Shown piece by piece: positions 36,797 through 42,513 of a DNA stretch of 64,000 bases. The DNA comes from a virus: the IMG/VR virus record IMGVR_UViG_3300010397_000041, positions 1 to 64,000 of that record; one strand, written 5' to 3'. Position numbers and translations under genes: made by a program. Within the stretch, counting starts at the first letter, position 1; every line of letters begins with the position of its first letter. The notes beneath the pieces are model-generated. The model ran no database searches and was not told where the DNA came from. It saw nothing but the letters and a program-made list of their open reading frames with translations.

Positions 36797-37210
36797 TCAC
36801 GTCTTCTTTTTGCGTCGGGTGCTCTTGCGACGATGAGCGGGCTTCTTGTGGTGAACGCCTTTTCGCCGCGGTTTGTGAGATCCCCTGTGATGGTGTTTCA
36901 GCCCGCGTCGCCTGTGTTCGTGAATCCCCTTGCGGCGGTGGATCGGATGTTTCAGGTGCCGGTGGCCACCCTTACGGCGATGGACGACCGTCCGGCGGTG
37001 CTGGTGGCGTAGGCCACGGCGACGGGTACCGCGTCGTCTCGATGCCCGTGTCCCTCCGCGGTTCCGCTTCGAGTTTTTGATCTCTTTGCGGACATGGAAG
37101 GAGCGGCGGAACGACTTGCCCGGGTTTCGGTTGCGGGACCGGAAGCCGCGGATATGCAGGCCCTTGCGGGCATGATGTCGGACGACGCGGACCCGGTAGT
37201 CGCGGGCCAT
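36797..37210 (-). CDS. Extremely basic His/Arg/Lys-rich protein, 137 aa
   Basis: ATG overlapping the previous stop (ATGA). By my count 39 Arg, 17 Lys and 20 His in 137 residues, with only three acidic residues. The C-terminal two thirds repeats an irregular 'H-R-R-K-G-x-H' theme (VHRRKGGHRH, IHRRKGIHEH, HKPRRKGVHH). The N-terminal 45 residues are less repetitive (ARDYRVRVVRHHARKGLHIR). It lies in the neck/tail gene block, so it may bind DNA in the head or neck, neutralise packaged DNA, or bind anionic host polymers. No known family recognised. Confidence 0.65.
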   Translation of the reverse strand: MARDYRVRVVRHHARKGLHIRGFRSRNRNPGKSFRRSFHVRKEIKNSKRNRGGTRASRRRGTRRRGLRHQHRRTVVHRRKGGHRHLKHPIHRRKGIHEHRRRGLKHHHRGSHKPRRKGVHHKKPAHRRKSTRRKKKT

Positions 37211-37765: not shown

Positions 37766-38920
37766 TCAGATCGCCACGCGGGCGTACCGCTCGAGGATTT
37801 CCGCGGCCGCGGCTTCCATGGCCTCCATGTCCGGGCCGAGGTCCTTGTCGAGCGCGGCCGTGCCGGTGTCCGAGGACTTGCGGACGTAGACGGTCGCTAT
37901 CTGCCCGACGGCGATCTTGATGTCGAAGGGGAGCGTGCCTATCCCCGTGCCGGCGCTGTGCGCGTTGACGGTGCCCACGGCGAGCGGCACCGTCCCCGGC
38001 CCGACCGCCGGTGTCCAGGTGGAGGCGACGGTGACCTGCTCCTCGACACCTGGGTCGGTGATGCGCAGCTGCTCACCGGGCTGGATCCCGGTCGTGTCAG
38101 CGAGGATCAGACTCGTCACGCCCGCGGTCGCCGCCGACGTGAGCGCGGAGATCGGGTAGCCGGCGATGTAGTCGAATTCGACGGCGACCGTGCCGCCGGA
38201 CGGCGGGCCGAACTGGAATCCGCCCATCCAGCTGCCCGACGGCGACAACGGGATGATCATCGCCCCGTCTTCGACCCACAGCGCGCCCGGTGTGACCGTG
38301 GTCGCCGGCCCGCCGACGGCCGCCGAGTAGGCGACCCGCGTGCAGGAGATCGGCGGCACATGACCGGAGGTCTGCCGGGGATGTAGCCGTAGGCAGCCGT
38401 CGCGGCCGATCCGCGCTGTCTCATGCTCGGCGAGCACCTGGTGGGCGCCGAGCTGAATGTTGCAGTAGTTGTCCGCCCACCTGCTCGCGCGCAACAAAAT
38501 GTTCGCGAGCTCGCTGTCGTTCGCGGCCGCGGACGCGTTGGCGATCAGATCGTCGAAGTTCACACCGGTCGGCATCGCGCGGAACTCGGCGTTGGTCAGG
38601 TAGCTACCCGGCCAGCCGAAGATCTGCCCGGCGTCGCTGCCGACCGACGACGGGAGAACATCGAACTGGCCCTCGTAGGCCGTGTTCGGCAGCGTCGAGA
38701 CCGCGTGATAGCCGTAGTGCCCGGACGCCGGCGGCAGCCAGTCGACGTGGCAGGTGCCGGTAGCGTCGTGACTGACTGCCGGTGTCTGCGTCGTCCCGTC
38801 GGGGAGTTTGACAGTGACGACCATCGTCGCCGGGTCGATCGGCTGCCCGGTCGTCGGATCGGTGACGACGAACGGGCCGAGGCGGACCTCCTGGCCAAAC
38901 GGGTAGGGCGTCGTCGACAT
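37766..38920 (-). CDS. Head-tail connector with inserted beta-modules
   Basis: 384 aa. Residues 1-90 form an Ig-like beta-domain (GPFVVTDPTTGQPIDPATMV; GHYGYHAVSTLPNTAYEGQF). Residues 100-250 are helical with NAEFRAMPTGVNFDDLIANA and ILLRASRWADNYCNIQLGAH, typical of head-tail adaptor proteins. About 255-325 is the same module as in the major tail protein (ATAGVTSLILADTTGIQPGE ... VNAHSAGTGI). The C-terminal helix TAALDKDLGPDMEAMEAAAA closes it. Likely docks on the portal and forms part of the neck. Confidence 0.7.
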   Translation of the reverse strand: MSTTPYPFGQEVRLGPFVVTDPTTGQPIDPATMVVTVKLPDGTTQTPAVSHDATGTCHVDWLPPASGHYGYHAVSTLPNTAYEGQFDVLPSSVGSDAGQIFGWPGSYLTNAEFRAMPTGVNFDDLIANASAAANDSELANILLRASRWADNYCNIQLGAHQVLAEHETARIGRDGCLRLHPRQTSGHVPPISCTRVAYSAAVGGPATTVTPGALWVEDGAMIIPLSPSGSWMGGFQFGPPSGGTVAVEFDYIAGYPISALTSAATAGVTSLILADTTGIQPGEQLRITDPGVEEQVTVASTWTPAVGPGTVPLAVGTVNAHSAGTGIGTLPFDIKIAVGQIATVYVRKSSDTGTAALDKDLGPDMEAMEAAAAEILERYARVAI

Positions 38921-38938: not shown

Positions 38939-41137
38939 CTACTGATCCAGTCCGGTCATCGACCCTGCAGGCGAGTCGCCGCCCGTCATCCCGCCCGCCG
39001 CCATGTCTCCGCCGGTGACATGCGCCCACAGCGGATAGACCCGCGGCATGACGAGCTGCTGCCCGCGCCGCCACGGCCGCGACGGCGCGCGCCGCGTGGC
39101 GATCACCGGGGGTGGCACCCAGATACCGCGCGGTCCCTGCGGCCACGGCGGCTCGGCGAACCTGCCCCTGCGGGGCCGGGCCGCAACCGGCCGCCGCGAC
39201 GATGGCCGCGGCACCGGGCACGGCGTTGACCACGTGGGCTCGGCGAACCGACCCCGCCGGGACCGGACCGTGCCCGGTCGCCGCGACGCCATCGGCGACG
39301 GCGGCCAGGGGGCCGTCCCGCCGAACGGGCCGCCGAGGAACCGTCCGCGGCGGACCGGGCGGACCGCAGGCCGCCGGCTGGTCGTGTTGCCCGGGGGGAA
39401 CAGCGGACCAGGAGGCGGGATGTCGAAGACCCGTGCCCGGCGGACTACCCGGACCGCGGGCCGCCGGGACGCCGACGGCGACGATGGGACTGGTGGGATG
39501 ACCTGCGGTGGAACCGTTTCGGCGAACCGTCCCCGGCGGGTGGGCCGGGATGGTGCCCGCCGGGTTGCGGCGACCGCCGGAGGCAGCCACAGACCCTGCA
39601 ACCCTTGCGGCCAGGGCGGTTCGAATGAATGCCCGCGCCGCAGCTTCGGCGCCCACCTTGGCCGGTTGCCCGCCGGCGCGACCGCCGGTGGCAGCCACTT
39701 GCCCTGAGTGCCCTGCGGCCACGGCGGGGAAGCGACCTTGCCTCGGCGAGGCAGCGGGAACCAGCGGGGACGGAACCCGGCCGGGTCCGAGATCCCCGGA
39801 AACGGCTGGGTTTGTAGGCCCTGTGGCCACGGCGGCGACCAGCTGGCCCCACGCCGCAACTTCGGCGCCCACCGCGGGCGGGAGCCAGGCTGGTCGTAGA
39901 TCCCGGGGTACGGCTGCGACTGGACGCCCTGCGGCCAGGGAGGCTGGAAGAACCGGCCGCGTGGCTTCGGCTGCCAGCGGGGTTTCGACCCGGGCTGGCT
40001 GGTGAAGCTCGGCCACGCCTGCCCGGTGTTGCCCTGCGGCCACGGGGGCTCGAACAGCCGGCCTCGGCGGGTCGGCCGGGCAGGAGCCCGCCGCATCGCG
40101 ATGGTCGCCGGTAGGAACGTGCCGATCGGCGCCGGCGGGACCGCGATGATCTGCCCACGCCGGGTCGGACGTGCCGGGGCCCGTCGGGCGGGGATCGACT
40201 GGCCGACCAGAGCCGGTGGGGTGAGCGCCGGCCACGGCGGCTCAAACAGCCGGCCCCGGCGGGGCAGCGGGAACCAGCGTGGATGAGTGCCGGCCTGCCG
40301 CGTCTGGTCGGGCAGCCACCCACCGCGGGTCGCCTGCGGCCACGGCGGCTCGGCGAACCGGCCTCGGCGGGTCGGCCGGGCCGGCTGATGCCGGGCCGTG
40401 ACCGACGGCGGAGGGAACGGGACCGGCGGATACCACGGCGGCTCGGCGAACCGGCCGCGGCGGGGACGCGGGAACCAGCGTGGATGGCTGCCCGCCTGGG
40501 CGGTGACGGTCGGCCAGCGCTGCCCAACCGGGCCCTGGGGCCACGGCGGCGACCAGCTGGCCCCGCGGCGGAGCTTCGGCGCCCACCGCGGGCGGGAGCC
40601 AGGCTGGTCGTAGATCCCGGGGTACGGCTGCGACTGGACGCCCTGCGGCCAGGGCGGATCGAACCGGTGGCCACGGGCGATCCGCGGCGCCCAGCGGGGC
40701 CGGTAGCCCGCTGGCTCCGTGAAGCTCGGCCACGCCTGGCCCCGGGTGGCCTGCGGCCACGGCGGCTCAAAGGTCTTGCCACGTCGCAGCTTCGGAGCCC
40801 ACCGCGGCCGCGACCCCGACTGGTCGTAGATCCCCGGGTACGGCTGCGACAGCGGCCCCTGCGGCCACGGCGGGTCGAACGACCTGCCCCGCCGAAGCTT
40901 CGGCGCCCACCGCGGCCGCGAACCGGCCGGCTCGATGAACGACGGCCAGCTCTGCCCGGTGTTGCCCTGCGGCCAGAAGTCGAAGTACCGGCCCCGGCGA
41001 GGACGCGGGAACCAGCGGGGACGGCTACCGGCTTGCTTCGGGTCGGTGGGCCACGCCTGGCCTTGATTGGCCTGGAGGAGGTTGGGCTCGAACCTCTTGC
41101 TGCGACGCGGCCAGGCGCCGCGCCAGCGCCGCAGCAT
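38939..41137 (-). CDS. Arg/Pro/Trp 21-repeat protein, 732 aa
   Basis: Built almost wholly of about 21 tandem repeats of 28-36 residues. A consensus unit begins RWAPKLRRGRSFEPPWPQG and continues with a variable segment such as QSQPYPGIYDQPGSRP. The first half has PGIYDQ/FTEPAG linkers; later units shorten to RPTRRGRFAEPPWPQ and lose Trp. The C-terminus is Met/Gly/Asp-rich (TGGDMAAGGMTGGDSPAGSM). Strongly basic, with regular Trp, Pro and Arg and no long hydrophobic stretch. It has a ribosome site (GGGGGTAG) and good codon bias, and fills the place between decoration genes and connector. No family recognised; a role in head decoration, neck/DNA contact, or host adhesion is open. Confidence 0.8.
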   Translation of the reverse strand: MLRRWRGAWPRRSKRFEPNLLQANQGQAWPTDPKQAGSRPRWFPRPRRGRYFDFWPQGNTGQSWPSFIEPAGSRPRWAPKLRRGRSFDPPWPQGPLSQPYPGIYDQSGSRPRWAPKLRRGKTFEPPWPQATRGQAWPSFTEPAGYRPRWAPRIARGHRFDPPWPQGVQSQPYPGIYDQPGSRPRWAPKLRRGASWSPPWPQGPVGQRWPTVTAQAGSHPRWFPRPRRGRFAEPPWYPPVPFPPPSVTARHQPARPTRRGRFAEPPWPQATRGGWLPDQTRQAGTHPRWFPLPRRGRLFEPPWPALTPPALVGQSIPARRAPARPTRRGQIIAVPPAPIGTFLPATIAMRRAPARPTRRGRLFEPPWPQGNTGQAWPSFTSQPGSKPRWQPKPRGRFFQPPWPQGVQSQPYPGIYDQPGSRPRWAPKLRRGASWSPPWPQGLQTQPFPGISDPAGFRPRWFPLPRRGKVASPPWPQGTQGKWLPPAVAPAGNRPRWAPKLRRGHSFEPPWPQGLQGLWLPPAVAATRRAPSRPTRRGRFAETVPPQVIPPVPSSPSASRRPAVRVVRRARVFDIPPPGPLFPPGNTTSRRPAVRPVRRGRFLGGPFGGTAPWPPSPMASRRPGTVRSRRGRFAEPTWSTPCPVPRPSSRRPVAARPRRGRFAEPPWPQGPRGIWVPPPVIATRRAPSRPWRRGQQLVMPRVYPLWAHVTGGDMAAGGMTGGDSPAGSMTGLDQ

Positions 41138-41153
41138 GGACTACCCCCGACAC

Positions 41154-41222: not shown

Positions 41223-41720
41223 CTACTCTTCCCACTCCGCGCTGAGCGTGTACAGGTGCGCCGTGGGCAGCGCGTTGCCGACGTTGATGAACGCGATGCC
41301 GTTCGCGGTACCCGACGCGACGATCAGCTCCTCCAGCAGCTCGAACGGCAGGTCGACGCCGCTCTGCGAGTTGAACGACACCTCGTACAGGTACGGCGCG
41401 GTCCACGTCGCGGTGGGTACGGTCGACCAGGCGGTGTCCAGGCCGGTGATCTGGCTGGCCGCAGTGTTGGGGTCGAGCTTGTTCCCGGTGCTGGTCGCGG
41501 TCGCGGTGCCGCGGGCGGTGGTACGAACCAGGGCAATGGTGAGCTGCTGCGAGGTCGGCGCGCCGGTACCGGCGCGGACGCCGATCGTGAGCCGGCGCAG
41601 CTTGTAGCCGGCCGACGCACCGGCCTGGAGGCTGCCGAACAGCGCGTTGGCCGTGCCGCCGGACGGGGCGGTCGCGACGATCGCCGTCGCCGACTCCACG
41701 GTGATGTTGTAGCGGGCCAC
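41223..41720 (-). CDS. Beta-rich decoration-type protein, 165 aa
   Basis: GTG at 41720 with AAAGG upstream; the open frame beyond it runs through a terminator and is rejected. Begins VARYNITVESATAIVATAPS, followed by LRRLTIGVRAGTGAPTSQQL and WTAPYLYEVSFNSQSGVDLP. All-beta and soluble, with no membrane segment. In phages, proteins of this type between capsid and connector genes often decorate the head; the function here is inferred from position. Confidence 0.65.
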   Translation of the reverse strand: MARYNITVESATAIVATAPSGGTANALFGSLQAGASAGYKLRRLTIGVRAGTGAPTSQQLTIALVRTTARGTATATSTGNKLDPNTAASQITGLDTAWSTVPTATWTAPYLYEVSFNSQSGVDLPFELLEELIVASGTANGIAFINVGNALPTAHLYTLSAEWEE

Positions 41721-41799: not shown

Positions 41800-42513
41800 C
41801 TAGAAGAAGCTGTTGTACTGGCCGGTGATCGGCGGGACGACCACACCGCCATAGGGGCCGGGGTATGTGGTGTCTGTCCAGACGACGTCGTCGATGTTGA
41901 CTGTCGTGTTTGAGGCGCCAGTCGGCATGCCCACGCGAAGCTGGCTGATTGCGGACGACGAGCCGGTGTTCGTGGCCCCGCTGTTCAGGGTTTCGGCTGG
42001 GTTGGTCCCGTCCGGCGCGGTGAAAATCTTGAGAGTCGCCGAGCCGTTGGTGCCGGTGCCAGCGGTCGCGCCGAGCTCAAACCTGTACCAGGTGGACGTG
42101 GACAGCGTGGTGGTGCTGGTCGTCGAACCGGTCGTGCCGTTCCACAGCAGGGTGATGGTGCCGGCCGAGTTGAGGCGGATCCCCGCGATGTTGGTAATAC
42201 CACCGGACATCAACGTCGCGATGACAATGTTGCTGCTCAGCGACGATGGGAGCAGGGCGTACACCCGGCAGTAAGTGGTGGTGGCCGAGACGCCGGAGGT
42301 CCAGGCGCAGTACGGCGAGCCACTGACCCCTGTCGTCGCGTACTGGCCGCTCAGCGTGCCGTGGGCGGCGAAGGTGGAGTCATATTTGGCGGTGCCGATG
42401 GTTGTGGAAACCGTGTTCCACTGGTTGTCGCTGGCGCCTGAGTTGGACGTCGAGATCGCAGTTCCGGAGGACTGGCCGGATTCGTAGGAGTTGGTGAGGG
42501 TCGCCACCGGCAC
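41800..42513 (-). CDS. LamG/concanavalin-like decoration protein, 237 aa
   Basis: Thr/Ser/Gly-rich jelly-roll pattern: YATTGVSGSPYCAWTSGVSA, YCRVYALLPSSLSSNIVIAT, ITNIAGIRLNSAGTITLLWN, TSTWYRFELGATAGTGTNGS and the terminal VNIDDVVWTDTTYPGPYGG, all typical of concanavalin-like sandwich domains. Likely exposed on the capsid surface and binds glycans. The end (TGQYNSFF) may dock on the head. Confidence 0.7.
   Translation of the reverse strand: MPVATLTNSYESGQSSGTAISTSNSGASDNQWNTVSTTIGTAKYDSTFAAHGTLSGQYATTGVSGSPYCAWTSGVSATTTYCRVYALLPSSLSSNIVIATLMSGGITNIAGIRLNSAGTITLLWNGTTGSTTSTTTLSTSTWYRFELGATAGTGTNGSATLKIFTAPDGTNPAETLNSGATNTGSSSAISQLRVGMPTGASNTTVNIDDVVWTDTTYPGPYGGVVVPPITGQYNSFF

What the first reader, a model, noticed from the sequence alone, without database searches (positions are those of the whole stretch)
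38939..41137. 21-unit Arg/Pro/Trp repeat protein in the head-neck block
Seen: about 21 tandem 28-36 residue units with consensus start RWAPKLRRGRSFEPPWPQG, strongly basic, with one or two Trp and many Pro per unit. Units degrade towards the C-terminus, and linker types (PGIYDQPGSRP, FTEPAGSRP) recur out of order, which suggests unequal crossing-over. I do not know such a family. Its place between decoration genes and the connector, and its charge, suggest a virion part contacting DNA or an anionic surface.
Basis: partly seen in the sequence, partly recalled or inferred. Interest (0 to 1): 0.85.

Follow-up and report, generated by a model that had tools for sequence, protein, structure and literature searches.

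The report
Virus surface cassette with Arg-Pro-Trp repeats
A virus of probably soil-dwelling actinobacteria carries a very basic protein made of 21 similar units that belongs to an apparently undescribed family, found next to a gene for a likely shell-decoration-type protein and usually near a swappable gene of sugar-binding type, and it probably helps the particle display parts that stick to its host.

Summary
In detail: 38939-41137(-) encodes 732 residues (21% Pro, 15% Arg, 42 Trp, pI 12) with 21 unit starts, far above shuffles, and is translated (third-position divergence, dN/dS about 0.35, ribosome-site-like sequence). It belongs to a family. With the neighbouring gene (41223-41720, '...EWEE', predicted jelly-roll) as bait I examined 43 loci (window, 37 IMG/VR, 5 genomes): 32 have a downstream ORF whose N-terminus contains RRWR (30 of them with 1-19 units by profile), 3 have units without that cap, 8 have none by profile. 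The cassette lies before the head-tail adaptor (17 loci), after the tape measure (2, cap fused to tail-block proteins) or before the terminase (2); in one locus similar units flank a LamG domain. That argues against a neck-specific or DNA-contacting role and for a virion-surface one. Unexpectedly, the gene upstream of EWEE usually ends in a C-terminal tag of SQYxGFF type, on domains that look unrelated. I propose a surface display/adsorption cassette with the array as an extended, multivalent, cationic strap or stalk. Virion presence and binding partners are inferred, not shown. No Pfam, PHROG, NCBIfam, PDB-sequence or cultured-phage match was found (repeat queries are partly masked).

The parts
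38939..41137 (-). 732-aa Arg/Pro/Trp repeat (RPW) protein, 21 unit starts
41081..41137 (-). N-terminal cap MLRRWRGAWPRRSKRFEPN; RRWR present in all 32 capped members; by eye it aligns with a repeat unit (first unit)
41144..41148 (-). GGGGG, ribosome-binding-site-like; SD-like words in 29 of 32 capped members against 17% of random 14-mers of the loci
40574..40654 (-). copy 1 of the exact 81-bp internal duplication
39860..39940 (-). copy 2 of the exact 81-bp internal duplication
38939..39025 (-). C-terminal Gly/Thr tail with a pattern of about 10 residues (AHVTGGDMAAGGMTGGDSPAGSMTGLDQ); other members also end in short-repeat tails (by eye)
41223..41720 (-). EWEE protein, 165 aa from GTG, upstream partner gene, predicted jelly-roll-like beta-sandwich (pLDDT 89)
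41800..42513 (-). 237-aa protein (LamG-like to my eye, no Pfam or PHROG hit) ending in the tag variant ITGQYNSFF
41803..41829 (-). C-terminal tag ITGQYNSFF; a variant: it fits the pattern but not the strictest SQY pattern
37766..38920 (-). head-tail adaptor, next gene downstream
   Evidence: phrog_442, E 1.2e-5

Best explanation
The RPW protein is a virion-surface component of a movable late-gene display/adsorption cassette of actinophages. The cassette has three parts: a variable, sometimes lectin-like protein with a C-terminal tag of SQYxGFF type; a conserved jelly-roll-like protein (EWEE); and the RPW protein. Shown: real translated gene, family, gene linkage, variable unit number, several late-operon positions, fusion of the cap to tail-block proteins, tag on differing domains. 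Inferred: the array is an extended, polyproline-like cationic strap or stalk whose RRGxFxxPPW units act as repeated low-affinity docking sites. The sites would hold tagged or jelly-roll partners to the particle and/or stick to anionic actinobacterial wall polymers through Arg and Trp.
For: Purifying selection and a ribosome-site-like sequence. EWEE bait: 32 of 43 loci have a capped ORF downstream, 3 more have units without the cap. The bait makes this linkage partly circular, but the three contigs found without it also have EWEE upstream of the RPW ORF. Head position: adaptor downstream in 17 of 43 loci (6 of the 18 loci hit supplied the profile; phrog_442 confirmed for the window, L007, L013, L037). 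Tail position: L033 and L053 follow tape measure genes; the L053 cap is fused to a minor tail protein, the L033 cap to a phrog_5313-type protein. Terminase side: L021, L022. Similar units by eye flank a Laminin_G_3 domain in L028 and lie between other parts in L031, L051, L015. EWEE model pLDDT 89; best solved-fold neighbours a phage 7-7-1 tail fiber (Z 8.1) and the KHP40 trimeric cement protein (Z 8.0). Tag: 26 of 42 loci by the pattern; 26 of 26 of these are capped against 6 of 16 others (Fisher 5e-6); the G270 locus, read afterwards, has it too. AlphaFold2 finds no fold in the array (pLDDT 41), as expected for an extended chain. Precedent: mycobacteriophage Douge carries glycan-binding domains on capsid, tail tube and baseplate (PMC13033339, passages).
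Against: No proof of presence in virions and no binding data; the partner of the array is unknown. 8 of 43 loci lack the ORF by profile: L025 and L049 end within 1.1 kb; L019, L028, L042, L051 have looser units by eye and L020 is a close copy of L019; L046 has unrelated repeats. In L034 the array is replaced by unrelated repeats although a tagged protein is present, so the array is not needed for the tag. The tag association is post hoc and the loci share ancestry. A jelly-roll Z of 8 is borderline. A low AlphaFold2 score from 8 sequences is weak evidence for any state.
Confidence: 0.45

Rival explanations
1. Direct adhesin: the units themselves bind teichoic acids or other anionic wall glycans by Arg/Trp multivalency, and the neighbouring genes are merely other adhesins.
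For: Arg far above Lys (112 against 12), regular Trp/Phe, pI 12; lectin-type neighbours (Laminin_G_3 in nearby genes of L007, L013, L029, L045).
Against: The units seem more conserved than a loose electrostatic binder needs (inference); single-unit and cap-only forms exist (L022, L034, L053).
Confidence: 0.22
2. Capsid or tail strap/cement: an extended chain laid in grooves of the virion lattice for stability, without a role in adsorption.
For: Extended composition; periodic conserved motif; jelly-roll partner resembling a cement protein at borderline Z.
Against: Unit number from 1 to 19 by profile in corresponding genes; also found in tail blocks and beside lectin-type domains. The window MCP-like protein is near neutral (pI 7.8).
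Confidence: 0.15
3. Passive stalk: only the cap and the C-terminal tip matter; the array is a length spacer.
For: The array is replaced by unrelated repeats after the same cap in L034; array length varies.
Against: dN/dS 0.25-0.54 in nine of ten pairs, 0.74 in the tenth; a conserved RRGxF...P core in diverged members.
Confidence: 0.1
4. DNA-contacting internal or head-completion protein.
For: Charge +99; upstream of the adaptor gene in 17 of 43 loci.
Against: Tail-block and terminase-side copies and fusions to tail and lectin-type proteins; Arg/Pro/Trp with almost no Lys is unlike the packaged basic proteins I know (recalled).
Confidence: 0.06

Closest known systems
Jelly-roll cement/fiber proteins (Helicobacter phage KHP40 trimeric cement 7dou, Agrobacterium phage 7-7-1 tail fibers 9rkv)
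   Same: The EWEE partner has a similar predicted fold (VIA Z 8.0, rmsd 2.6, 105 aligned; Z 8.1, rmsd 2.5, 102 aligned) and lies among structural genes
   Different: No sequence match in PDB; borderline Z; the RPW protein itself gave no confident model to compare
Actinophages decorated with glycan-binding domains (mycobacteriophage Douge, PMC13033339, passages seen)
   Same: Accessory surface domains on head and tail of an actinophage that bind wall glycans
   Different: Folded Ig-like and carbohydrate-binding domains; in the Douge text 'proline-rich', 'arginine' and 'disordered' occur 0 times
Laminin_G_3 / ConA-like lectin domains (PF13385)
   Same: Matched by genes near EWEE in L007, L029, L045 (directly upstream), by one two genes further upstream in L013, and inside the L028 protein
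   Different: The window neighbour 41800-42513 itself gives no Pfam hit
Proline/arginine-rich antimicrobial peptides (PR-39, Bac7, indolicidin; recalled)
   Same: Arg/Pro/Trp composition
   Different: 732 residues, phage late operon, period of about 30-36; no sequence test against these peptides was made

Membership tests
Described protein families (Pfam, PHROGs, NCBIfam) | Profile match to the RPW protein | tested here: not met
   0 families at E<=1: Pfam on the window protein; PHROGs on it and on 9 members; NCBIfam on 9 members. PADLOC was not run
Collagen-like phage fiber | Gly every third residue (G-X-Y) | tested here: not met
   9.8% Gly; longest run of Gly at every third position is 2
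Jelly-roll cement/decoration protein (for the EWEE partner) | Jelly-roll fold | tested here: inconclusive
   pLDDT 89 beta-sandwich; VIA Z 8.1 and 8.0 to a phage fiber and a cement protein, the rest below 8
Jelly-roll cement/decoration protein (for the EWEE partner) | Binds the capsid surface | not testable with these tools
   Needs virion structure or pull-down
Phage virion surface/adsorption protein (for RPW) | Encoded among late structural genes | tested here: met
   Adaptor, MCP, tape measure, minor tail or terminase genes nearby in several loci
Phage virion surface/adsorption protein (for RPW) | Fused to a known tail or lectin-type domain in some relatives | tested here: met
   L053: RRWR cap (no units by profile) plus minor tail phrog_1885; L028: looser units by eye plus Laminin_G_3
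Phage virion surface/adsorption protein (for RPW) | Present on the particle | not testable with these tools
   Mass spectrometry and labelling needed
Internal DNA-binding head protein | Confined to the head block | tested here: not met
   Tail-block and terminase-side positions

The most novel reading that the evidence does not exclude
A plug-in display system: differing passenger domains (LamG lectins, other beta-sandwich-like proteins, a possibly Rossmann-like protein in L047) carry one portable C-terminal tag of SQYxGFF type that docks them onto a common jelly-roll plus cationic RPW strap. Phages could then exchange host-binding domains by swapping one tagged gene, much as a scaffoldin displays dockerin-tagged enzymes, and move the whole cassette between head and tail.
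Probability: 0.28. Interest if true: 0.85.

Novelty: new variant of a known kind. Interest (0 to 1): 0.64.

Why it matters
If right, it defines a family of surface proteins of viruses of actinobacteria with an unusual Arg/Pro/Trp repeat, and a conserved short tag that may let a phage exchange host-binding domains. It would make host adsorption in poorly sampled actinophages directly testable and give a sequence handle (EWEE plus tag plus RRWR cap) for finding such cassettes in metagenomes.

Tried and rejected
Spurious-ORF reading: rejected (codon-position bias, dN/dS, start-site conservation), although overlapping ORFs of 543 and 445 aa lie on the same strand. DNA-contact/neck reading: lowered (see rivals).

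Cultured phages: tblastn of P0001, P0007, EWEE (window and L014 versions), L022 and L034 proteins gave no match in 50,697 records (E limits 0.01, 1, 0.01, 10, 10, 0.01); a control with the window terminase gave 668 records at E<=10. BLAST masks low complexity, so the repeat queries are weak tests; the EWEE queries are better ones. The L053 protein matched 9 Streptomyces records, from query residue 98 on at the earliest, so its cap was not covered. The unit profile A6 in 345 genomes gave nothing and also missed genomes in which the EWEE search had found the cassette, so it is uninformative. Coruscant (a Foldseek hit) was not followed beyond passages of PMC7650747. hhalign joined 20 groups of tagged proteins into 16 at probability 80 or more; profiles of 1-3 rows are insensitive, and many may be one diverged beta-sandwich superfamily. 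Literature: seven searches whose listings and abstract starts showed no such family; the library is open-access only.

Rows dropped: loci that repeat a contig already counted were left out; 43 = window + 37 + 4 + 1. The tag table has 42 loci (L062 not included). The pattern is broader than SQYxGFF; the 'loose' class was set by eye after seeing the list.

Full report
Observation. The frame 38939-41137(-) is a 732-residue ORF of very unusual composition: P 21.0%, R 15.3%, W 5.7%, K 1.6%, pI 12, about +99. It has 21 unit starts on the RRG-type anchor, 29-36 residues apart. The two halves align at 724 against at most 193 in 200 shuffles. An exact 81-bp duplication lies in units 5-6 and 12-13, while 13 of 21 units match the homologous array of L001 best in the same order and 8 do not.

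Is it a gene? Against L001, 441 of 632 aligned residues are identical, with codon-position differences 141/123/259, dS 0.70 and dN 0.24. Ten family pairs give dN/dS of 0.25-0.74. An SD-like word precedes the start in 29 of 32 capped members, against 17% of random 14-mers from the loci.

Where it lies. The window holds a siphophage-like late block: terminase large subunit (phrog_2), portal (PF04860), a MCP-like protein (phrog_13692 without named function, and a SU10_MCP match below its cut-off), head-tail adaptor phrog_442, minor tail phrog_290 and tape measure. The window is part of a 92,425-base virus record.

Relatives. A scan with the protein itself gave two loci; a pattern scan gave 7 stretches, of which the 4 on three contigs carry the family. 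All three contigs also have an EWEE gene upstream of the RPW ORF, so that linkage does not rest on the bait alone. The EWEE gene was the better bait: 7 loci, then 37 IMG/VR loci and 4 genome loci (Candidatus Frankia meridionalis, Acrocarpospora catenulata, a Micromonosporaceae MAG, Planotetraspora) with an alignment of ten. In the order of the Acrocarpospora genome 3 of 345 genomes matched, two of them already known; in that of the Frankia genome 1 of 35, the known one. The family looks rare in sequenced hosts.

Linkage. Of 43 EWEE loci examined, 32 have a downstream ORF whose N-terminus contains RRWR, 3 have units without that cap (L023, L031, L062) and 8 have none by profile. Of the eight, L025 and L049 end within 1.1 kb; L019, L028, L042 and L051 show looser units by eye, L020 is a close copy of L019, and L046 has other repeats. 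Of the 32, L034 and L053 have the cap but no units by profile, L021 scores weakly, and L040 and L044 are cut by the contig end. The ORF follows EWEE by 3 to 1157 bases, sometimes with a gene between. Among ORFs of the loci then held, the unit profile at E<=0.01 hit only such ORFs or copies of them. L022 is the minimal form: cap, one unit and a short tail in 82 aa. By eye the cap aligns with a unit (RRWxxxxxRRxxRFxPP), so it is best seen as unit 1.

Position and fusions. An adaptor profile hits 18 of 43 loci, downstream in 17 and upstream in L035; 6 of the 18 supplied the profile. L033 and L053 have tape measure genes upstream; the capped ORF of L053 is a minor tail protein (phrog_1885, residues 133-450), and that of L033 matches phrog_5313, a family without named function (residues 434-1062). 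L032 has the cassette after a weakly recognised tape-measure end and a phrog_5313 protein. L021 and L022 are followed by a terminase large subunit (phrog_38). In L028 R/P units by eye flank a Laminin_G_3 domain; in L031, L051 and L015 units lie between other parts. A part that moves between head, tail and operon end and fuses to tail and lectin-type domains is most simply a surface part.

Partner structure. EWEE from 34 sequences models at pLDDT 89 as a beta-sandwich. Foldseek against PDB gave mostly viral capsid jelly-rolls with low TM; BFVD gave mostly uncharacterised viral proteins, TM up to 0.74. VIA-align ranks a phage 7-7-1 tail fiber (Z 8.1) and the KHP40 cement protein (Z 8.0) first; values near 8 can reflect a common arrangement. 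The RPW protein models at pLDDT 41 without secondary structure from 8 sequences, which fits an extended or disordered chain but proves none.

Tag. The gene upstream of EWEE usually ends in a short C-terminal motif, typically (I/V)SQYxGFF. The pattern fits 26 of 42 loci; a looser class set by eye has 33. Capped downstream ORFs: 26 of 26 with the tag against 6 of 16 without (Fisher 5e-6); loose 31 of 33 against 1 of 9 (3e-6). Both tests ignore ancestry and were framed after seeing the data. The G270 locus, fetched afterwards, ends in KPLSQYTGFF. A stricter SQY pattern, which the window's own GQYNSFF does not meet, is met by 30 of 1794 ORFs of at least 120 aa in the loci held. They are 22 distinct genes at 21 loci, each upstream of an EWEE gene whose end lies within 1.2 kb, L029 having two in a row. 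Without their last 18 residues, 34 tagged or loosely tagged proteins fall into 20 groups at phmmer E<1e-3 (11 clusters, 9 singletons), 16 after hhalign. Pfam recognises Laminin_G_3 in L029 and L045 and in the L007 protein, and nothing above its cut-off in the other eight of ten tried. Many may be one diverged superfamily (inference), but LamG, the DFNRADG type of L043/L052 and L047 look distinct. A tag conserved on different domains suggests a docking signal.

Mechanism and limits. I commit to a surface display/adsorption cassette in which the RPW protein is a multivalent extended cationic strap or stalk (0.45). Whether its units hold partners, bind wall polymers or both is open. L034 shows that the tag can exist with the cap alone, so the tag's partner may be EWEE or the cap rather than the array. 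Mycobacteriophage Douge, whose surface domains bind wall glycans (PMC13033339, passages only), is the nearest functional precedent; in PMC13252515, on baseplate accessory proteins of other mycobacteriophages, the word 'proline' occurs 0 times (passages only).

Novelty. No family model or solved-chain sequence matched, and cultured phages gave no match, with the masking caveat for repeat queries. I file it as a new variant of a known kind (phage surface/adsorption modules); the display-system reading would be a stronger claim and needs binding data.

Noticed in passing
41803-41829 and the gene upstream of EWEE in related loci: C-terminal tag of (I/V)SQYxG(F/Y)(F/Y/H) type on proteins that look unrelated; the strict form was found only at this gene position in the loci held.
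   Followed up: partly
36797-37210 (-): 137-aa extremely basic ORF (charge +54, rich in Arg, Lys and His) between the neck genes and the minor-tail-type gene; no PHROG or Pfam hit.
   Followed up: no
L002:5899-6990 and L017:4755-5753: Two RPW proteins share a nearly identical C-terminal part including the whole tail but differ in their N-terminal units, suggesting recombination inside the array.
   Followed up: no
L034:5565-7370 and L046:5478-7337: Array position filled by unrelated repeats (SVSDSALASDAVARA type after the cap in L034; an ASVSAGGAVTR-like type without RRWR cap in L046).
   Followed up: partly
L029:3646-4984: Two consecutive genes both ending in SQYTGFY.
   Followed up: no
L031:6129-10505: ORF of at least 1458 aa alternating beta-type stretches with RPW-like units.
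   Followed up: no
L036, L037, L038, L039, L045 (RPW C-termini): Shared C-terminal repeats of VDAYxGTV type ending in CGR, a different tail type from the window.
   Followed up: no
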